Assembly (NCBI GenBank): GCA_022844205.1
Contig: JALHMF010000001.1
Span: 583,023-647,022, forward strand
DNA: 64,000 bases
Reading direction: 5' to 3'
Source of the DNA: Xanthobacteraceae bacterium
GTDB lineage: Bacteria > Pseudomonadota > Alphaproteobacteria > Rhizobiales > Xanthobacteraceae
Within the stretch, counting starts at the first letter, position 1, and every line of letters begins with the position of its first letter. Below are positions 20,433-28,527 of this stretch, in pieces. The translations under genes were made by a program, and so were the position numbers. The notes beneath the pieces were generated by a model that was not told the origin of the DNA, ran no database searches, and saw only the letters and a program-made list of their open reading frames with translations.

Positions 20433-20531
20433 GGCGCGCTCAGGAGCACTTGAACTTCTTGTGAGCGGGATTGCAGTCCGGAGCGATTCCAAGTCATGCT
20501 AGTTTCAAGTTTCTATCCTAAGGAGAATCTC

Positions 20532-21092
20532 ATGAGCTACGGATCGTTGCCGGCGACGGGCTATTCGGGGACCGCCAAACTCTTGCACTGGCTGGTGGCC
20601 CTCTGCGTCCTCACCATCATCCCGGTCGGTTTCTGGATGAACATGGAAGGGCCGTACCAGAACCAGCTCTTCAATCTCCACAAATCGCTGGGCGTTCTGA
20701 TCCTCGGGCTGATGATCGTCCGCATCGCCTATCGGCTGCTCGCGGGCGCACCCGCGGCTGAGCCGGGTATCGCGCGCTGGCAGAAAGCGATTTCGTCCGC
20801 GGTGCATGGAATTCTCTACATTCTGCTGATTGGGCTTCCGATCGCTGGCTACATTGCGAATTCCGCTTACGGCGCGAACGGTACGCCGACGCCGTTCTTC
20901 GGGCTGTTCGAGCTTCCGCCGATCGTGGGCCCGAACGAGGAACTCTCAAAAAGCATCTTCGCGGTCCACAAGATCGTCGGCTGGGTCGTCGGCGGACTCG
21001 TGGTGCTGCACATCGGCGGCGCGATGATGCACTTCCTGAAAGGCGACGGCGTCATGCAGCGCATGATCCCGAAGTCGTTCAGCGGCCGCTGA
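20532..21092 (+). CDS. Cytochrome b561 family protein
   Basis: 186-aa di-haem inner-membrane cytochrome of the bacterial b561 (CybB) family. It has four helices with candidate haem His in KLLHWL, NLHKSLG, AVHGILY and FAVHKIVGW, and a late His in VVLHIGGAMMH. It probably passes electrons from quinol to an unknown partner; E. coli CybB oxidises ubiquinol with superoxide. ATG 20532 has AGGAGA 5 nt upstream. It lies just after the cyclase remnant and converges with the methyltransferase gene, whose stop is 1 bp away. Confidence 0.9.
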   Translation: MSYGSLPATGYSGTAKLLHWLVALCVLTIIPVGFWMNMEGPYQNQLFNLHKSLGVLILGLMIVRIAYRLLAGAPAAEPGIARWQKAISSAVHGILYILLIGLPIAGYIANSAYGANGTPTPFFGLFELPPIVGPNEELSKSIFAVHKIVGWVVGGLVVLHIGGAMMHFLKGDGVMQRMIPKSFSGR

Positions 21093-21093
21093 A

Positions 21094-21933
21094 CTATTTC
21101 GGAAGCGCCAGCAAATCCTCATGGCCGACGGTGCATGAAGTGCCGTCGGCCGTTCGCGCTTCATACCATTGCGTGATGGCCGCTTCCGGCACGGAGCCTG
21201 TTTCACGGACGGCTACGGCCCAGCCATGGGCCAGTTCGCGAATGAGTGCACGGTCCTTGCCGTCCAGCACCCAAGGGCTTTTTCCAGTCGTGATTTTGTA
21301 ACCCGCATCGGCGAATTTCTCTGCCATCAAGGACGCGGCGTGCGCTCCAGCCGAGGGACCAAAACCCTTGTCGCGGCCGAAATGACTTTCGAAGGCGGCA
21401 ACCATTGTCTTGTCCGCCGGGTGCGCGGGCTTCCATTCCGTAATCGAATCGTGCGTAAGCGCGGTGTAGAAAGCGATCTGCTTTTCCGCGAGCGTGGAAA
21501 CAAAACGGGCGATCCAATCCACGGAGACTAGATCGAACAGCGCCGCCGCGGTGACGAGATCGGGCTTGGATTTGCCCCAAGGCGCTGGATCGGCGGCGAG
21601 GTCGTGCCGCTTCAGTTCGATCTCCAATTCGCGGCCATCCTTCACCACCTCGATTCCTGTTTTCGAGGCGCGGGCGAAATCGGCCCATTGCGAAAGGGTC
21701 TCCGAAGCGGCGGATAGAAGAATCGGATCGTAATCGACCAGAGTCCAACGCTGCTTTGCGGGCAGGAAAGGGGAGATCGCGCGCAGGTTCGAGCCAAGAC
21801 CGGTGCCGAGGTCGAACACATGGACCGATTTCTGCTTCGCAAAAGCAGCACCCAGCTTTTCGAGCAGCCCGCGATCCCGCGAGCGATGATCGACCGGCTC
21901 GCGCAGCGTGAGCCATTCCGGTGCGAAGCTCAT
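21094..21933 (-). CDS. Class I SAM-dependent methyltransferase
   Basis: 279-aa Rossmann-fold methyltransferase. Motif I is VFDLGTGLGSNLRA, followed by an acidic strand end (LVDYDPILL); post-motif VTAAALFDLVS and a WVLDGKD segment follow. The N-terminus has PVDHRSRDRGLLEKL, typical of this conserved but uncharacterised alphaproteobacterial group. ATG 21933 overlaps the stop of the glycosyltransferase gene (ATGA), so it is the last gene of a four-gene operon with a dehydrogenase, a pterin-synthase-like protein and a glycosyltransferase. The substrate is probably the product of that set. Confidence 0.8.
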   Translation of the reverse strand: MSFAPEWLTLREPVDHRSRDRGLLEKLGAAFAKQKSVHVFDLGTGLGSNLRAISPFLPAKQRWTLVDYDPILLSAASETLSQWADFARASKTGIEVVKDGRELEIELKRHDLAADPAPWGKSKPDLVTAAALFDLVSVDWIARFVSTLAEKQIAFYTALTHDSITEWKPAHPADKTMVAAFESHFGRDKGFGPSAGAHAASLMAEKFADAGYKITTGKSPWVLDGKDRALIRELAHGWAVAVRETGSVPEAAITQWYEARTADGTSCTVGHEDLLALPK

Positions 21934-22988
21934 GCGTTGACTCCGGCGCGGGCCTTGTCGAGCGCACGCGCGACACGAGCGGCCGTTTCGTCCCAGCCGG
22001 GAAGTTTCTTCGCATGGTTCCACGCCGCATCGGCGCGGCGCTTCAGTTCGGATTTATCGGAAAGCATTGTCCGAAGCGCATCGGCGAGCGCCGCGGCGTC
22101 TCCGGGCGGCACGAGAATTCCCGCGTCCGCCGGCACCGTGTTGACGACGGCCCCTCCGGTACAGCCGACAACCGGCAGCCCGCGCGCGAGCGCCTCGGCG
22201 AATGCCATGCCGTAGCCCTCAAAGTGAGAAGGCAGCACGAAGAGGTCGGCGCGATCATATTCCCGCTCAAGCGTCTCGTCGTCGAGCGAGCCGAGAAGCT
22301 TCACGCGGCCGGCAAGATCATGTTTTGCAATCGCATCGCGAACGATTTTCACCGCGGCTGAATCGCGCTCGGCACTGCCCGCAATATGGTTTTCCCATTG
22401 CAGGTCCTTGATGCGCGCGAGTGCCGCGACCAGAACGTCATATCCCTTGCGCGCGGTGACGGAGCCGACGCTGAGGAGACGAGGGACTCCGCCGCTGCCT
22501 TTCGCACGCGGGGCGGGATCGGTACCCGGCTCCGCGACGGATATCAAATCTTCCCGAACGCCAAAATCGCGCGTCAGCAGATCCTTCGTGCCGGAACTGG
22601 TCACAATCACATGAACGGTGCGGGAGAGCGCCTCGCGTTCGGTCCGCTCGAAATATTTCGCTCGCTCCGCGTCGATCCCCGTCTCGAGCGCCAGCGGATG
22701 ATGCACGAGCGCCACGATCGGCTGGCGAACTTGCCTTACGAATTCCAAAGGCATCGCACCGAAAGCGAGACCGTCAATCAGCACCAGCGATTCGGCAGGC
22801 GTTTCGGAAATCATCCGCACGCTTGCTTCGAGGCTTGCTGTAACCGGCGACGGAAAATCACCCGGCAAGGCGATGTGCCGGACCTTCCATCCCTGCTGCG
22901 GAAGCAGGTCGATCACGCGCCGGTCGTAACGGTAGCCGCCGGTGGGCGTGCTGATATCGCCGGGTATGGCGAAGACGACCTCGCGCAT
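21930..22988 (-). CDS. GT4-family glycosyltransferase
   Basis: 352-aa GT-B-fold glycosyltransferase of family 4. It starts with VVFAIPGDISTPTGGYRYDR (acceptor-side Gly loop) and continues with LSVGSVTARKGYDVL (donor domain start). FVLPSHFEGYGMAFAEALARGLPVV carries the E-x7-E motif, and VPPGDAAALADAL ends the domain. It transfers a sugar from a nucleotide sugar; the operon (dehydrogenase, pterin-synthase-like protein, methyltransferase) suggests a small-molecule acceptor rather than a polysaccharide. ATG 22988 starts 5 nt after the previous stop, and its own stop overlaps the methyltransferase start. Confidence 0.87.
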   Translation of the reverse strand: MREVVFAIPGDISTPTGGYRYDRRVIDLLPQQGWKVRHIALPGDFPSPVTASLEASVRMISETPAESLVLIDGLAFGAMPLEFVRQVRQPIVALVHHPLALETGIDAERAKYFERTEREALSRTVHVIVTSSGTKDLLTRDFGVREDLISVAEPGTDPAPRAKGSGGVPRLLSVGSVTARKGYDVLVAALARIKDLQWENHIAGSAERDSAAVKIVRDAIAKHDLAGRVKLLGSLDDETLEREYDRADLFVLPSHFEGYGMAFAEALARGLPVVGCTGGAVVNTVPADAGILVPPGDAAALADALRTMLSDKSELKRRADAAWNHAKKLPGWDETAARVARALDKARAGVNA

Positions 22989-22993
22989 GAAAA

Positions 22994-23392
22994 TCAGACC
23001 GCGGCCTCGTACCAGCCGCGCGCGATGTGGGATTCGTGCATCGTCACGCGGATTTTCGAAACGCCTTCGGAGTCCGCACCCAGCTTGCCGGCTTTCAGCG
23101 CGGCTTTCATCCGGTCGAATACATAGCGCGACAGAAATTCCGTCGTGGTCTGCTTGCCCTTGAATTCCGGCATGTCGTCGAGATTGCGATAGTTGATCGG
23201 TTCGAGCGTAGCCTTGAGCGCGTCGATGGCGGCGCCGATGTCCACCACCACTTCATTCGGCCCGAGCTTCTCGCGAAAGAACGCGACATCGCAGACGAAG
23301 GTCGCGCCATGCACACGCTGGGCGGGCCCGAAGAACTCGCCCTTGAACGAATGGGCGATCATGATGTGGTCGCGAACTTCGACGGCGTACAT
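22994..23392 (-). CDS. Divergent 6-pyruvoyl/6-carboxytetrahydropterin synthase homologue
   Basis: 132-aa member of the PTPS/QueD superfamily (T-fold). MIAHSFKGEFFGP gives the first zinc His and IRVTMHESH the late E/H pair. The middle motif is altered: the usual C-x3-HGH reads AQRVHGATF, so the catalytic Cys and the third zinc His of canonical QueD/PTPS are missing. It may therefore catalyse a different reaction on a 7,8-dihydroneopterin-like substrate. It lies 28 bp after the dehydrogenase gene and 5 bp before the glycosyltransferase gene. A queuosine role is unlikely, since no queC or queE is nearby. Confidence 0.8.
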   Translation of the reverse strand: MYAVEVRDHIMIAHSFKGEFFGPAQRVHGATFVCDVAFFREKLGPNEVVVDIGAAIDALKATLEPINYRNLDDMPEFKGKQTTTEFLSRYVFDRMKAALKAGKLGADSEGVSKIRVTMHESHIARGWYEAAV

Positions 23393-23420
23393 GGTTTTCC
23401 CTCAAGCGTTTGAAACGGGA

Positions 23421-24431
23421 TCAATAGCGCACAAGCGCGCCGACGCCAGCGGCGTCAGCGGCCAGCAACCGCGGCAATTCGCGCGGCAGGTCGGCGAACG
23501 GTACTTCTTCACCCAGCAGTGCTTCATAGCGATCGTCGGCAAGAAGGCGCAGTGCTGCATCCATGCGGCGGCGATGGGTCCAGCGCGCGCGGCGGTCGGC
23601 TGGAATGGTGCCGACCTGACTGGAAATGATGCGCAGCCGGCGGGAGTGAAAATTGCCGCCAAGAGACAAACTTACAGGCTTGTCGCCGTGCCAGCTTGCT
23701 TCCACGACGCTGGCTTCCATTCCGGCAAGTTCGATGCCGAGGCAAAGTCCCGCCTCAGTGGCGCTGGCATTCACGACGAGGTCGGCTTCATGCGGAGCGT
23801 TTTCGGGCAAGGCAAACCGGGCACCGATTTTTTCGGCGAGTGCCGCACGGGACTTGTCCTTGTCCACCACGGTCACTTCCGCGCCGGGCAGGCCAGCCGC
23901 GAGTGCGGCGGTCAGCAAACCCACAAGCCCGCCACCGATAATGACAATGCGATCGGCGGGGGCGGCATGGCCGTCCCAGAGAATGTTCAAGGCGGTTTCC
24001 AGATTGGCGGCGAGCACCGCGCGACGGGCCGGTACGTTACCCGGCACGACGACGGCGGCGTCGGCCGGGATCGTGAAGCGGTCCTGATGCGGGTGAAGCG
24101 CAAAGACAGTTTTGCCCTTCAGATTTGCCGGTCCTTCTTCCACCAGCCCCACCGCCGCATAGCCGTACTTCACCGGGAAGGAGAACTCGCCCTCCTGCGT
24201 GGGTAGCCGCATCCGGGCGTATTCGCCGGGCGGCACCTTGCCTTCGAACACCAGCCGCTCGGTGCCCCGGCTGAGGCCGGAAAACAATGTTTTTACAGTG
24301 ACTTGTCCGGAAACGGGTGCGGGGAGGGCCGTTTGCCGCAGTTCAGCCTTGCCCGGCGCTGTGTACCAGAGCGCCGTTGCGGCGGTGTTTGCTTTTACGT
24401 CCGCTGAATTCACAGTCCGGCCCATTCGCAA
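23421..24431 (-). CDS. Medium-chain dehydrogenase, BchC-like
   Basis: 336-aa oxidoreductase of the MDR superfamily. The N-terminal catalytic domain has LFSGLSRGTERLVFEG and FPVKYGYAAVGLVEEG, a pattern also seen in BchC (bacteriochlorophyllide dehydrogenase) relatives. The Rossmann domain has IIGGGLVGLLTAALA and an acidic strand end VVDKDK, so NAD(H) is the likelier cofactor. The structural-zinc cysteines of classical alcohol dehydrogenases are absent. It is the first gene of the operon. No photosynthesis genes are nearby, so a BchC role is not supported; it more likely oxidises or reduces the pterin-like or sugar product. Confidence 0.82.
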   Translation of the reverse strand: MRMGRTVNSADVKANTAATALWYTAPGKAELRQTALPAPVSGQVTVKTLFSGLSRGTERLVFEGKVPPGEYARMRLPTQEGEFSFPVKYGYAAVGLVEEGPANLKGKTVFALHPHQDRFTIPADAAVVVPGNVPARRAVLAANLETALNILWDGHAAPADRIVIIGGGLVGLLTAALAAGLPGAEVTVVDKDKSRAALAEKIGARFALPENAPHEADLVVNASATEAGLCLGIELAGMEASVVEASWHGDKPVSLSLGGNFHSRRLRIISSQVGTIPADRRARWTHRRRMDAALRLLADDRYEALLGEEVPFADLPRELPRLLAADAAGVGALVRY

Positions 24432-24539
24432 TAAAGGGGCTGCCGTTCTAGGACAGCACTTAATTCCGCCACGGGTTTGTAGCGATTTCCCGGCGGAAGG
24501 CGAGTGCGCCCGGAAGATAGCCTAAACGCAGAAAAACCG

Positions 24540-26336
24540 ATGTCCCTTGATCCCACGATGAAGCTGCCCGCCGGTGCCAAGACCGCCGCGGAACACACCA
24601 CGCCGACCGGCATGCAGAGCGTACCGGACCTGTTCATGCGGCGCGCATTCTTCACGCTGCTTTGCCTCGCAACGACGGCCTGGCTGTGCTGGTGGCTCGC
24701 CAAAATTCTTGCCACGGACGGCTTCGGAGTCATCGATTTCATGATGGTCGTGGCATTTCTCACCAATGCGCCATGGATCGTGGTCGGGTTCTGGAATTCG
24801 GTGATCGGCTTCGCGCTGCTGCACTTCACGCGCGAGCCGCTGGAGAGCGTGCTCCCCGTTGCCGCCGACCGCCGCGCGAACGATCCGGTGAATATGCGTG
24901 TCGCGATTCTAATGACCGTGCGGAACGAAGATCCCGCGCGCGCCGCCGCGCGTCTGCGCGTGGTGAAGGCAAGTCTCGACAAGACGGGGTTCGGCGACAA
25001 TTTCGATTATTTCGTGTTGAGCGACTCCTCTCGTCCTGAAGTGATCGCGGAAGAGGAAGCGACCTTCGCGGCCTGGCGCCGGGAATTTTCCAATCCGGAT
25101 CGCATGGTCTATCGCCACCGCGAAAGAAACACCGGCTTCAAGGCCGGCAACGTCCGCGACTTCTGCGAGCGCTGGGGACCGAAATACGAGATCATGATCC
25201 CGCTCGACGCCGACAGCCTGATGACCGGCACGTCGATTGTGCGGCTGGTACGCGTGATGCAGGCAAGCCCGAAGCTCGGCATTTTGCAGAGCCTTGTTGT
25301 CGGCATGCCGAGTCCGAGCTTTTTCGCGCGCGTGTTTCAGTTCGGCATGCGTCATGCGATGCGCTCCTTCACCACCGGCAGCGCCTGGTGGCACGCGGAC
25401 TGCGGACCATTCTGGGGTCACAACGCGGCGGTCCGCATCGCGCCGTTCACCGAACACTGCAAATTGCCGGACCTGCCGGGCAAGCCGCCGTTCGGCGGGC
25501 ACATCCTTTCGCACGACCAGATCGAAGCGATCATGATGCGCAAGGCCGGTTTTGAGGTGCGCGTGCTGCCGGAAGAAGAAGGCAGCTATGAGGAAAATCC
25601 GCCGGCACTGCCGGATTTCATGGTGCGCGACCTGCGCTGGTGTCAGGGCAACCTCCAATACTTCAAGCTCGTCGGCCTGCCGAAGCTGCCGGCCAGCCGG
25701 TTCAATATCCTGTTCGCGATCCAGATGTTCATCGGGGTTGCGGGACTGATCCTGTTCGTTCTGCTGGCGGCGATTTCTGCGGTGCTGTGGCCGTCCAGCG
25801 TTGCCTTCCCCGTGGTTTCGGCGCTCGCTTTCTATCTCGTCTGGCTGTTCTTGTATTTCGCCCCGAAATTCGCCGGCGTCGCCGACGCGATCATCCGCTC
25901 GCCGCGCCACTACGGCGGCATCGGCCGCCTGCTTGGCGGCGGATTGCTGGAGACGGTGTTTACGTTCATGCTCGTGCCCATCTCTATGGTGGGTCAGACC
26001 ATCTTCATGGTGGCGCTCGCCTTCGGGAAAATGGTGCATTGGGACGCGCAGCGCCGCGACCGCTATCGCCTTGCCTGGAGCGAGGCGTTCAAGGTGCTGT
26101 GGCCGCATACGCTGTTTGGCTTGGCGATCCTCGCACTGCTCGTCATCGGCAATCCATCCGCGATCCCGTGGTTTCTTCCGTTCCTGACCGGTCTGGTGCT
26201 TTCGATACCGTTCGCGGTGTTCACGGCTTCGCCCGAACTCGGTGCGTGGGCGGCGAAAGCGAAGCTCTGCGCGATCCCGGAAGAGTTCGAGACGCTGCCG
26301 GAGATCGCGGCGCTCGAATCTTCCCAAGCCCACTGA
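24540..26336 (+). CDS. opgH: Glucans biosynthesis glucosyltransferase H
   Basis: 598-aa membrane glucosyltransferase (GT2, OpgH/MdoH) that builds the beta-1,2-glucan backbone of osmoregulated periplasmic glucans from UDP-glucose. Two N-terminal helices (about residues 35-95) are followed by the catalytic loop: ILMTVRNEDP, PLDADSLM (DxD), HDQIEAIMMR and RDLRWCQGNLQ (the Q/R-x-x-RW-type motif). The C-terminus has about five helices. It is shorter than E. coli OpgH, lacking the long N-terminal cytoplasmic region. A GTG at 24504 with GGAAGG nearby is an alternative start. No opgG lies beside it; an FkbM methyltransferase gene follows 7 nt later. Confidence 0.92.
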   Translation: MSLDPTMKLPAGAKTAAEHTTPTGMQSVPDLFMRRAFFTLLCLATTAWLCWWLAKILATDGFGVIDFMMVVAFLTNAPWIVVGFWNSVIGFALLHFTREPLESVLPVAADRRANDPVNMRVAILMTVRNEDPARAAARLRVVKASLDKTGFGDNFDYFVLSDSSRPEVIAEEEATFAAWRREFSNPDRMVYRHRERNTGFKAGNVRDFCERWGPKYEIMIPLDADSLMTGTSIVRLVRVMQASPKLGILQSLVVGMPSPSFFARVFQFGMRHAMRSFTTGSAWWHADCGPFWGHNAAVRIAPFTEHCKLPDLPGKPPFGGHILSHDQIEAIMMRKAGFEVRVLPEEEGSYEENPPALPDFMVRDLRWCQGNLQYFKLVGLPKLPASRFNILFAIQMFIGVAGLILFVLLAAISAVLWPSSVAFPVVSALAFYLVWLFLYFAPKFAGVADAIIRSPRHYGGIGRLLGGGLLETVFTFMLVPISMVGQTIFMVALAFGKMVHWDAQRRDRYRLAWSEAFKVLWPHTLFGLAILALLVIGNPSAIPWFLPFLTGLVLSIPFAVFTASPELGAWAAKAKLCAIPEEFETLPEIAALESSQAH

Positions 26337-26343
26337 GGCGCAT

Positions 26344-27126
26344 TTGTCCGACGCTCTCGATACGATCCGCGGGGTCATCCGGTCGCTGCGCATTTATTAT
26401 GGCGATCCCGCGCGCAAGCAGACGATAGACGCGATGCATGCGCGTTTCCTGAAGAGGGGCGACCTCGCCTTCGACATCGGCTCGCATGTCGGCGACCGCG
26501 TAGCGTCGTTTCGCAGGCTGGGCGCGCGCGTGGTGGCGCTGGAGCCGCAACCGGCACTTGTGCGCACATTGCGCGTGCTGTTCGCGCTCGACCGCAAGGT
26601 CAGGATCGAGGCCGCGGCGGTCGGGCGTGCGGCCGGTGAGATCGAGCTGAACCTCAATCTGAAAAATCCGACGGTCGCCACCGCTTCGGACGATTTCATC
26701 AAGGCTGCGGACGGCGCCCTCGGCTGGGAAGAGCAGCGCTGGACCCGCAAGCTCAAAGTTCCGATGACGACGCTCGATGCGCTGATTGCAAAGCACGGCA
26801 CGCCGCAATTCGTGAAGATCGACGTCGAGGGTTTCGAGGACGAAGTCCTCGCCGGTCTCTCGCAGCCTTTGGCTGCGCTGTCGCTCGAGTTCACCACCAT
26901 CCAGCGCGATGTCGCAGTTCGCGCGATTGAACGGCTCGCCGCCGCCGCACCCTACCGCTTCAACGCCTCGCTCGGCGAAAACCAGCGCTTCGAACATGAG
27001 ACCGCACTGGATGCCGCGGGGATCACGGCCTGGCTGAGCGATCTGCCGCTCGCAGCCAATTCCGGCGACATCTTTGCAAGCCTGAACGCCTCGGCACTCG
27101 GACCTGCAAATCCGCGGGCCAATTGA
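26344..27126 (+). CDS. FkbM-family methyltransferase
   Basis: 260-aa SAM-dependent methyltransferase of the FkbM type. LAFDIGSHVGDRVASFRRLGA is motif I, VVALEPQPALV the acidic loop, FVKIDVEGFEDEVLAG the hallmark FkbM motif, and LSLEFTTIQ the late motif. Such enzymes O-methylate sugars and small molecules. The TTG at 26344 has GAGG 5 nt upstream and begins 7 nt after the opgH stop. The pairing suggests methylation of periplasmic glucans or another glycan; this is inferred. The stop codon falls inside a perfect FixK-type box. Confidence 0.85.
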   Translation: MSDALDTIRGVIRSLRIYYGDPARKQTIDAMHARFLKRGDLAFDIGSHVGDRVASFRRLGARVVALEPQPALVRTLRVLFALDRKVRIEAAAVGRAAGEIELNLNLKNPTVATASDDFIKAADGALGWEEQRWTRKLKVPMTTLDALIAKHGTPQFVKIDVEGFEDEVLAGLSQPLAALSLEFTTIQRDVAVRAIERLAAAAPYRFNASLGENQRFEHETALDAAGITAWLSDLPLAANSGDIFASLNASALGPANPRAN

Positions 27127-27136: not shown

Positions 27137-27251
27137 CCAACCGGTCCGTTCCATGCCGTCCCGCGAACGGGTATAGCCGCGACATTCAGCCAAGCGTATA
27201 TCTTCGAAAAGTGGATGTAATGCTTGGGAACAATTGTCCCTGGAGGACGCC

Positions 27252-27956
27252 GTGATCGATCCCGTTCCGTACAAGCCCGAGGAAGAAGGCGTCTGGCCGC
27301 CGACATTGTTTCCGCCCTACACCTCGACGGTGAAGCGCGCGCCGCGCCAGCCGCTCGTCTATATTCCGCAGACGCTTTCGGAAGTGACCGGGCCGGTTTA
27401 CGGCCACAGCAAACTCGCGGTCGACGATCACGACCTGACAAAACACCATAAGGGCGAACCGCTGGGCGAGCGCATTATCGTGACCGGCCGCGTGCTGGGG
27501 GACGATGGCTGTCCCGTTCCCAACACGCTGGTGGAAATCTGGCAATGCAACGCCGCCGGCCGCTACCGGCATCATGGCGATCAGCACGACGCGCCGCTCG
27601 ATCCGAATTTCTCCGGCGGCGGCCGCGTGCTGACCGACGCGCAAGGCAATTACAAATTCATCACGATCAAGCCGGGCGCCTATCCGTGGCGCAACCACCA
27701 GAACGCCTGGCGGCCGGCGCATATCCATTTTTCGCTGTTCGGTCCTGCTTTCGTGACCCGGCTCGTGACCCAGATGTTCTTCCCCGGCGATCCGCTGCTG
27801 GCACTCGACCCGATCATGATGAGCGTCCCCGATCCGGTTGCTCGCGACCGCATGATCTGCAAGTTCGATATCGGCTTGACCAAGCCGGAATGGGCGCTTG
27901 GCTACCGGCACGACATCGTTCTGCGCGGCCGCAACGCGACTCCGATGGAGCACTGA
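27252..27956 (+). CDS. pcaH: Protocatechuate 3,4-dioxygenase beta subunit
   Basis: 234-aa iron-binding subunit of the intradiol dioxygenase that opens protocatechuate to 3-carboxy-cis,cis-muconate with O2. The ligand pattern is visible: a Tyr in NAAGRYRHHGDQ, a Tyr in GAYPWRNH, and the His pair in WRPAHIHFS. GQCPVPNT-type strand DDGCPVPNTLVEIWQCNA is the core signature. GTG 27252 has GGAGG 6 nt upstream; a TTG at 27234 is in frame. The alpha-subunit gene starts 1 nt after its stop. No other pca genes are in the window, so the pathway must continue elsewhere. Confidence 0.95.
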   Translation: MIDPVPYKPEEEGVWPPTLFPPYTSTVKRAPRQPLVYIPQTLSEVTGPVYGHSKLAVDDHDLTKHHKGEPLGERIIVTGRVLGDDGCPVPNTLVEIWQCNAAGRYRHHGDQHDAPLDPNFSGGGRVLTDAQGNYKFITIKPGAYPWRNHQNAWRPAHIHFSLFGPAFVTRLVTQMFFPGDPLLALDPIMMSVPDPVARDRMICKFDIGLTKPEWALGYRHDIVLRGRNATPMEH

Positions 27957-27957
27957 C

Positions 27958-28527
27958 GTGTCGAAGCAGACGCCGTCGCAGACGGTCGGCCCTTTCTTTC
28001 ATCTGGACCTGCCTTTCGAAGGCGGCGACGTACTGGTTACCGCAAACACCAAGGGCGAGCGCATCCTGTTGGAGGGCCGCGTTGTCGATGGCGACGGCGA
28101 GCCGCTGAACGATGCGCTGATCGAAATCTGGCAGGCGAATGCGGAAGGCCGCTATGACCATCCGGAGGATGCGCAGGAAAAGCAGATCGATCCGGAATTC
28201 CATGGCTGGGGCCGCTGTCCGACCAGCCAGGATGGCGTGTATCGCTTCCAGACAGTACGCCCCGGCCCGGTTCCGGGCCCCGGCAATACGCTGCAGGCGC
28301 CGCATATCAATGTCATCGTTTTCGCGCGCGGCATGTTGCGGCATCTCACGACGCGGGTTTATTTTGAAGGCGAGGCCTTGAATGCAGACGATCCAATTCT
28401 TGCGCGCGTAACCGATACGAAACGCCGCGAAACGCTGATCGCCAAAAAGCAAAACGGCGGGTCAGCGGTCTACCGTTTCGACATCGTGCTCCAGGGCGCA
28501 AACGAGACGGTTTTCTTCGCCGCCTGA
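27958..28527 (+). CDS. pcaG: Protocatechuate 3,4-dioxygenase alpha subunit
   Basis: 189-aa non-catalytic subunit that pairs with PcaH in the (alpha-beta)n dioxygenase. It begins with SKQTPSQTVGPFFHLDLPF, the standard PcaG opening, and has ALIEIWQANAEGRYDHP and HINVIVFARGMLRHLTTRVYF, where the iron His of the beta subunit are replaced. The GTG at 27958 follows the pcaH stop by one base, so translation is probably coupled. The gene ends before a 349-bp intergenic stretch that leads to the TRAP transporter genes. Confidence 0.95.
   Translation: MSKQTPSQTVGPFFHLDLPFEGGDVLVTANTKGERILLEGRVVDGDGEPLNDALIEIWQANAEGRYDHPEDAQEKQIDPEFHGWGRCPTSQDGVYRFQTVRPGPVPGPGNTLQAPHINVIVFARGMLRHLTTRVYFEGEALNADDPILARVTDTKRRETLIAKKQNGGSAVYRFDIVLQGANETVFFAA

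What the first reader, a model, noticed from the sequence alone, without database searches (positions are those of the whole stretch)
21094..24431. Four-gene operon for an unknown, possibly glycosylated pterin
A BchC-like dehydrogenase, a PTPS/QueD homologue, a GT4 glycosyltransferase and a methyltransferase are packed with gaps of 28 and 5 bp and a 4-bp overlap. Glycosylated pterins exist in cyanobacteria (established), made by a pterin glycosyltransferase. No queuosine genes are present. I infer a pathway that makes a sugar-bearing, methylated pterin-like compound, which to my knowledge is not described in this group.
Basis: partly seen in the sequence, partly recalled or inferred. Interest (0 to 1): 0.65.

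Follow-up and report, generated by a model that had tools for sequence, protein, structure and literature searches.

The report
Orphan GTP-derived sugar-compound gene cluster
A tightly packed set of four genes, shared by many bacteria, probably builds an unknown sugar-bearing compound starting from the nucleotide GTP, using a pterin-enzyme relative that has lost its usual catalytic parts.

Summary
The four-gene operon is real and strongly co-conserved. In the 80 loci nearest to the window's PTPS-like gene (10 kb flanks where available), the dehydrogenase is found in 75, the GT4 in 76 and the methyltransferase in 68.

The PTPS-like protein is not a working QueD or PTPS by sequence. All 125 distinct family members examined have HGA instead of HGH, 124 have Ala at the catalytic Cys, and all keep the ring-anchoring Glu. 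Its solved homologue is SCO6650 of Streptomyces coelicolor (3d7j, E 4e-41).

Among 41 genomes (own plus relatives), 12 of 19 with the operon and 0 of 22 without it have a second strong RibD_C match, each beside the operon.

I read this as an uncharacterised pathway making a methylated, glycosylated compound from a GTP-derived 2-amino-4-oxopyrimidine, perhaps by the cyclohydrolase II branch. The window's own genome lacks that cyclohydrolase and reductase but has two FolE genes, so a true pterin precursor stays open. The product is unknown.

The parts
23421..24425 (-). BchC-like MDR dehydrogenase (DH), first gene of the operon; the family alignment shows SRGTE and YGY where zinc ADHs have Cys and GHE (comparison recalled), so it probably lacks the catalytic zinc
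   Evidence: found in 75 of 80 loci
22994..23392 (-). SCO6650-type PTPS-like T-fold protein: HGA for HGH, Ala for catalytic Cys, ring-anchoring Glu kept
   Evidence: closest solved chain 3d7j SCO6650, E 4e-41
21930..22988 (-). GT4 glycosyltransferase; nearest solved chains are 6kih (Tll1590) and 7qsg (D-inositol 3-phosphate glycosyltransferase)
   Evidence: 76 of 80 loci
21094..21933 (-). class I SAM-dependent methyltransferase (MT), ATG overlapping the GT4 stop by 4 bp
   Evidence: 68 of 80 loci, 6 of them displaced and on the other strand
24504..26336 (+). MdoH/OpgH-type membrane glucosyltransferase, divergent from the operon (in-frame ATG at 24540)
   Evidence: over the cut-off of two MdoH models; 59 of 80 loci; co-directional 2 bp upstream of DH in a Neorhizobium plasmid; no MdoG match in the genome
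24426..24539 (.). intergenic stretch between the two divergent transcription units, presumably holding both promoters (inference, not tested)
20496..21092 (+). cytochrome b561-family membrane protein, convergent with MT; frequent but optional companion
   Evidence: 32 of 80 loci
26242..27126 (+). FkbM-family methyltransferase downstream of MdoH; optional companion
   Evidence: 23 of 80 loci

Best explanation
The operon is the core of an uncharacterised, horizontally mobile biosynthetic module (the SCO6650 module). Inferred route: a GTP cyclohydrolase II opens GTP to 2,5-diamino-6-ribosylamino-4(3H)-pyrimidinone 5'-phosphate. A stand-alone RibD-type reductase turns the ribosyl into a ribityl side chain while the 2-amino group stays. 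The SCO6650-type T-fold protein holds the 2-amino-4-oxopyrimidine by its conserved Glu and carries out a step that does not need the PTPS zinc and Cys-Asp-His machinery. The MDR dehydrogenase, GT4 and methyltransferase then oxidise or reduce, glycosylate and methylate the product. In most loci examined a divergent MdoH-type membrane glucosyltransferase takes part, perhaps adding glucose at the membrane; in other lineages a CDP-alcohol phosphatidyltransferase, often with flippase- and sulfatase-like proteins, is found instead. Shown: gene content, co-conservation, loss of catalytic residues. Inferred: every reaction, the order and the product. The window's genome lacks the dedicated cyclohydrolase and reductase, so there the precursor must come from another source, for example the riboflavin or the FolE pathway.
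For: Co-conservation of the core: DH in 75, GT4 in 76, MT in 68 of 80 loci; DH and GT4 in 19 of 19 near-relative loci and 17 of 18 further strong loci. RibD_C reductase in 53 and GCH II in 39 of 80 loci. In 41 genomes, 9 of 12 GCH II matches of 160 bits or more lie within 8 kb of the operon, and a second RibD_C match of 100 bits or more occurs in 12 of 19 operon genomes against 0 of 22 others. Cluster GCH IIs keep the three Zn cysteines (38 of 39 rows, the other cut); the 19 weaker matches examined, akin to the own RibB-fused protein, do not. The one cluster reductase searched best matches a solved 2,5-diamino-6-ribosylamino-4(3H)-pyrimidinone 5'-phosphate reductase (6p8c, E 1.7e-24). Anchor Glu 125 of 125. 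Five relatives carry both a QueD with intact residues and the cluster PTPS. MdoH is co-directional with the core, 2 bp upstream of DH, in Neorhizobium.
Against: The own genome has a single RibD_C match, in a 387-aa frame of bifunctional size, its only GCH II-like domain lacks the Zn cysteines, and it has two FolE genes. Of 66 loci with at least 6 kb downstream, 17 have neither RibD_C nor RibA in the locus. RibD_C and RibA change at least 10 and 17 times on the operon tree, so they are not obligatory. The 80 loci are those most similar to the window, not a random sample. PTPS-like genes without the operon exist (L067; L138 and L172). No chemistry was tested.
Confidence: 0.45

Rival explanations
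1. The pathway starts from a true pterin of the folate route (dihydroneopterin or its phosphates, made by FolE); the PTPS-like protein is an aldolase- or epimerase-like T-fold enzyme acting without zinc, and the end product is a glycosylated, methylated pterin. RibA and RibD_C are accessory.
For: T-fold family and invariant anchor Glu. The own genome has two FolE genes (this late result moved some odds here from the main reading) but neither dedicated RibA nor RibD_C. Other loci without RibA/RibD_C still keep the core. Dihydroneopterin aldolase is a metal-free T-fold enzyme (recalled).
Against: The two FolE genes are not near the operon (contigs C4 and C5). I recognised no FolE-, FolB- or sepiapterin-reductase-type gene among the frequent neighbour clusters (not all of these clusters were annotated), while a GCH II and a ribosyl reductase are there.
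Confidence: 0.27
2. The operon mainly makes a cell-envelope carbohydrate: MdoH, GT4 and FkbM are the core, and the PTPS-like, dehydrogenase and GCH II genes decorate or regulate a periplasmic glucan.
For: MdoH in 59 of 80 loci and co-directional in Neorhizobium. An NdvA-type glucan exporter gene next to MdoH in seven betaproteobacterial loci (family checked on one).
Against: None of 57 loci with 9 kb upstream has both MdoH and the CDP-alcohol phosphatidyltransferase, and no MdoH match lies in the stretches around the three actinobacterial clusters L137, L141 and L175, while DH/PTPS/GT4/MT persist there. The own genome has no MdoG match.
Confidence: 0.15
3. The PTPS-like gene is this genome's QueD and serves queuosine; the neighbours are incidental.
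For: It is the only PTPS-family match of the genome and a QueC match is present.
Against: TIGR03367 28.2 bits against a cut-off of 89.25. Catalytic Cys and third Zn ligand lost in the whole family examined. The QueE model gives no match although it rings in 8 of 14 controls. Five relatives keep a QueD with intact residues besides it.
Confidence: 0.03

Closest known systems
SCO6650 of Streptomyces coelicolor (PDB 3d7j)
   Same: Same protein family over the full length (E 4e-41), with the same FGPAQ, HGAT and HESH stretches in the alignment. Two Streptomyces plasmids carry the family in the same DH-PTPS-GT4-MT order with CDP-alcohol phosphatidyltransferase, creatininase and GCH II (L137, L175); two others that I opened carry the gene without these partners (L138, L172).
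   Different: Recalled, not read: its structure paper reported no active-site zinc, no catalytic triad and no PTPS activity, but pterin-type binding residues, and left the function unknown. The proteobacterial operon mostly has MdoH instead of the CDP-alcohol enzyme, and its cluster GCH IIs carry Tyr (37 of 39 rows) where the two Streptomyces ones carry Met (read by eye).
SCO6655-type GTP cyclohydrolase II that stops at the formylaminopyrimidine (recalled from the literature, not read)
   Same: The two Streptomyces cluster RibAs have Met at the position of E. coli Tyr105 and a creatininase-family gene beside them, which would fit a deformylase step.
   Different: Proteobacterial cluster RibAs keep Tyr; eight of them also have a creatininase in the locus, so the creatininase does not simply track the Met switch.
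QueD / 6-pyruvoyl-tetrahydropterin synthase (COG0720)
   Same: T-fold family, two of three zinc histidines, ring-anchoring Glu.
   Different: The third zinc His and the catalytic Cys are lost in the family and Asp-His are mostly Asn-Tyr. PMC5041015 (passages seen) gives motifs of PTPS-I/II/III and calls the function of PTPS-V unclear; whether this family is PTPS-V could not be checked.
Archaeal/fungal-type riboflavin branch (cyclohydrolase, ArfC/Rib7 reductase; recalled)
   Same: Many clusters have a GCH II and a stand-alone reductase; the one searched matches best a 2,5-diamino-6-ribosylamino-4(3H)-pyrimidinone 5'-phosphate reductase.
   Different: I recognised no lumazine or riboflavin synthase among the frequent neighbour clusters (not all annotated); instead GT4, MT and MDR dehydrogenase.
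Cyanobacterial pterin glycosyltransferase systems (recalled)
   Same: A glycosyltransferase beside pterin-type genes.
   Different: Those glycosylate biopterin made by a catalytically intact PTPS-II; here the PTPS-like protein is degenerate.

Membership tests
QueD (PTPS-I) | CxxxHGH motif, three Zn histidines, Cys/Asp/His catalytic residues | tested here: not met
   Third Zn His is Ala in 125 of 125, Cys is Ala in 124 of 125, catalytic His is Tyr in 114 of 125.
QueD (PTPS-I) | passes the QueD equivalog cut-off | tested here: not met
   TIGR03367 28.2 bits, cut-off 89.25
QueD (PTPS-I) | genome has QueC and QueE | tested here: inconclusive
   QueC match yes; no match to the E. coli-type QueE model, which rings in 8 of 14 controls
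SCO6650 family | full-length sequence homology to 3d7j | tested here: met
   E 4e-41 over residues 1-131
SCO6650 family | loss of the zinc site and catalytic triad with retained ring anchor | tested here: met
   residue counts; zinc content itself not testable here
SCO6650 family | DH-PTPS-GT4-MT neighbourhood with GCH II and RibD_C | tested here: inconclusive
   core met in the window; GCH II and RibD_C met in many relatives but absent in the window's genome
MdoH (OpgH) glucosyltransferase | passes MdoH equivalog models | tested here: met
   over the cut-off of two models (NF003958 553.5 against 419, NF003962 487.4 against 328), below that of the other seven listed, such as NF003963 811.7 against 884
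OPG (periplasmic glucan) system | OpgG/MdoG partner | tested here: not met
   no PF04349 match in the own genome; 10 of 41 genomes searched have one
BchC | passes TIGR01202 cut-off | tested here: not met
   46.4 bits against 291.25
Cyanobacterial pterin glucosylation | pterin glycosyltransferase acting on a tetrahydrobiopterin-type acceptor | not testable with these tools
   acceptor cannot be read from sequence; GT4 nearest solved chains are 6kih and 7qsg

The most novel reading that the evidence does not exclude
The module makes a new class of cell-envelope compound: a pteridine- or ribitylaminopyrimidine-bearing glycolipid or glycan. The GTP-derived head is glycosylated and methylated, then attached or extended at the membrane by interchangeable modules: a CDP-alcohol phosphatidyltransferase (weakly matching models of enzymes that use polyol phosphates) with flippase- and sulfatase-like proteins, or an MdoH-type glucosyltransferase with or without an NdvA-type exporter.
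Probability: 0.08. Interest if true: 0.9.

Novelty: new variant of a known kind. Interest (0 to 1): 0.6.

Why it matters
The same core appears in Pseudomonadota, Actinomycetota and two bins labelled Acidobacteria, and on plasmids, yet its product is unknown in anything I could search. Dedicated GTP-opening and ribosyl-reducing genes in many relatives name a likely precursor, so the pathway becomes testable. It would also give a function to a solved but orphan enzyme family that lost the PTPS catalytic residues, and would correct annotations of these genes as queuosine-type 6-carboxytetrahydropterin synthase.

Tried and rejected
Queuosine QueD: rejected. Idea that a creatininase appears exactly where the cluster RibA has lost its Tyr: not borne out in Proteobacteria (8 of 8 creatininase loci with a RibA have Tyr), although both Streptomyces RibAs with Met have a creatininase beside them. 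Idea that MdoH and the CDP-alcohol phosphatidyltransferase replaced each other often: the tree needs as few as 3 changes, so the exclusivity (43 MdoH only, 9 CDP-alcohol only, 5 neither, 0 both of 57 loci) is largely clade inheritance. Structure searches of the MT and DH gave only generic relatives, no substrate hint. Paper searches found nothing on such a cluster; 6 led to PMC5041015; 84 (on RibBX) listed four papers, none opened. After the report check I added; the two FolE genes made me lower the main reading from 0.5 to 0.45 and raise the FolE rival from 0.22 to 0.27.
Full report
OBSERVATION. The dehydrogenase more likely starts at the ATG at 24425. The PTPS and GT4 assignments are firm. 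The MT is a weak Pfam match but is modelled confidently as a class I SAM methyltransferase (mean pLDDT 96.3; PDB matches). The dehydrogenase is a medium-chain dehydrogenase whose best NCBIfam model is BchC, far below its cut-off. Its family alignment shows SRGTE and YGY where zinc alcohol dehydrogenases have Cys and GHE, so it probably lacks the catalytic zinc (comparison recalled).

CO-CONSERVATION. In these 80, counted by tblastn with the window proteins anywhere in the locus, DH was found in 75, GT4 in 76, MT in 68 (6 displaced), the MdoH-like gene in 59, b561 in 32 and FkbM in 23; several loci are cut short by contig ends. Clustering of all ORFs added a stand-alone RibD_C protein (53), a GTP cyclohydrolase II (39) and a creatininase (9) (recounted in 96). 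These 80 are the loci most similar to the window, so the fractions are not those of a random sample. By genome sampling, the PTPS-like protein is in 19 of 41 genomes, own included, and at 50% identity or more in 19 of 299 genomes drawn from the phylum, own included (the other 21 of the 40 matches are weak). In the short stretches fetched around these, DH and GT4 are both present in 19 of 19 (one search set) and in 17 of the 18 further strong loci.

WHAT THE PTPS-LIKE PROTEIN IS. Its only strong solved relative is SCO6650 (3d7j), E 4e-41. Over 125 distinct family members the first two zinc histidines are kept (125 each), the third is Ala (125), the catalytic Cys is Ala (124), the catalytic Asp is Asn in 102, the catalytic His is Tyr in 114, and the ring-anchoring Glu is kept in 125. 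In 27 other PTPS-family rows (E. coli QueD, 15 from relatives, 11 weak phylum matches) all three His, the Asp and the catalytic His are kept in 27; Cys in 21 and the anchor Glu in 21. So it is unlikely to use the PTPS/QueD mechanism. Five relatives (G004, G005, G010, G017, G022) carry a QueD with intact residues as well, so this protein does not stand in for QueD there. From recall, the SCO6650 structure paper reported no zinc, no triad and no PTPS activity; I could not read it.

WHICH PRECURSOR. In the 41 genomes there are 12 cyclohydrolase II matches of 160 bits or more; 9 lie within 8 kb of the operon, the other 3 are in two genomes without it. A second RibD_C match of 100 bits or more occurs in 12 of 19 operon genomes and 0 of 22 others (Fisher p 6e-6; genomes are not independent), each with one copy beside the operon. 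Of 30 cyclohydrolase matches read at residue level, all 11 strong ones keep the three Zn cysteines and all 19 weaker ones, akin to the own RibB-fused protein, lack them. The one cluster reductase compared with solved chains matches best a 2,5-diamino-6-ribosylamino-4(3H)-pyrimidinone 5'-phosphate reductase, and the two scanned show no deaminase domain. On the operon tree, where RibD_C differs between independent pairs, RibA goes the same way in 4.8 of 8 and never the opposite way (median p 0.06). This suggests that the pathway begins with the cyclohydrolase II branch and keeps the 2-amino group. Against this, the window's genome has neither gene and has two FolE genes, on other contigs, and 17 of 66 loci with enough downstream DNA have neither RibA nor RibD_C. 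A folate-route pterin precursor is therefore a serious rival.

THE MEMBRANE PARTNER. The MdoH-like gene lies divergently upstream of DH in 59 of 80 loci. In a Neorhizobium plasmid it has turned round and lies 2 bp upstream of DH on the same strand, the best single sign that it belongs with the operon. The window's genome has no MdoG match, so this MdoH is not part of a standard periplasmic glucan system. In seven betaproteobacterial loci an NdvA-type exporter gene is beside MdoH (family checked on L071). Other lineages have a CDP-alcohol phosphatidyltransferase, in part with flippase-like and sulfatase-like genes; of 57 loci with 9 kb upstream, 43 have MdoH only, 9 the CDP-alcohol enzyme only, 5 neither, none both. 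The tree needs at least three changes between the two states (two if only starred branches count), against 15.6 in shuffles.

MOBILITY. The PTPS-like gene is on 20 plasmid records. In the tree of DH+PTPS+GT4, betaproteobacterial rows lie inside alphaproteobacterial ones, a Xanthomonas row groups with Rhizobium and Agrobacterium rows, and the two acidobacterial bins group with two proteobacterial rows (quick tree, not all forks starred). This is consistent with transfer of the whole unit. The three actinobacterial rows form one group.

EXCEPTIONS. Not every PTPS-like gene has the operon: L067 (Rhodomicrobium) and two Streptomyces plasmids (L138, L172) have it alone. Of the 83 loci searched (besides the window), five lack GT4 (L067, L091, L098, L125, L174); three of these have a ribokinase-type gene nearby.

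CONCLUSION. The product remains unknown.

Noticed in passing
G000:C1:553997-554434 (locus L134): The genome's only GTP cyclohydrolase II-like domain is fused behind RibB and lacks all Zn cysteines, as do 18 further copies read in relatives, so how these bacteria open GTP for riboflavin is not evident from this family search.
   Followed up: partly
G000:C4:160633-161166 (L241) and G000:C5:170711-171244 (L242): Two strong FolE (GTP cyclohydrolase I) matches in the genome, 245 and 239 bits; whether the second copy goes with the operon was not tested.
   Followed up: no
G000:C3:372940-373611 (L130, L133): A QueC match is present although no QueE match and no second PTPS-family match were found in the genome.
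   Followed up: no
L158 (G019:C207:1911-2324): A further type of PTPS-family protein, below the QueD cut-off (55.8 bits, cut-off 89.25) and not of the operon type, in a relative that also has the operon.
   Followed up: no
L091, L098, L174, L239: Ribokinase-type genes lie near the core in three of five loci that lack GT4, and in Palleronia (L239) where GT4 is displaced.
   Followed up: partly
L071, L072, L073, L075, L086, L094, L096: An NdvA/ChvA-type glucan exporter gene follows MdoH in these betaproteobacterial loci, and in six of them MT lies beyond it on the other strand (family checked on L071).
   Followed up: partly
window 27234-28527: Two adjacent plus-strand ORFs look by eye like the two subunits of protocatechuate 3,4-dioxygenase, followed by a TRAP-type transporter; not searched.
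   Followed up: no
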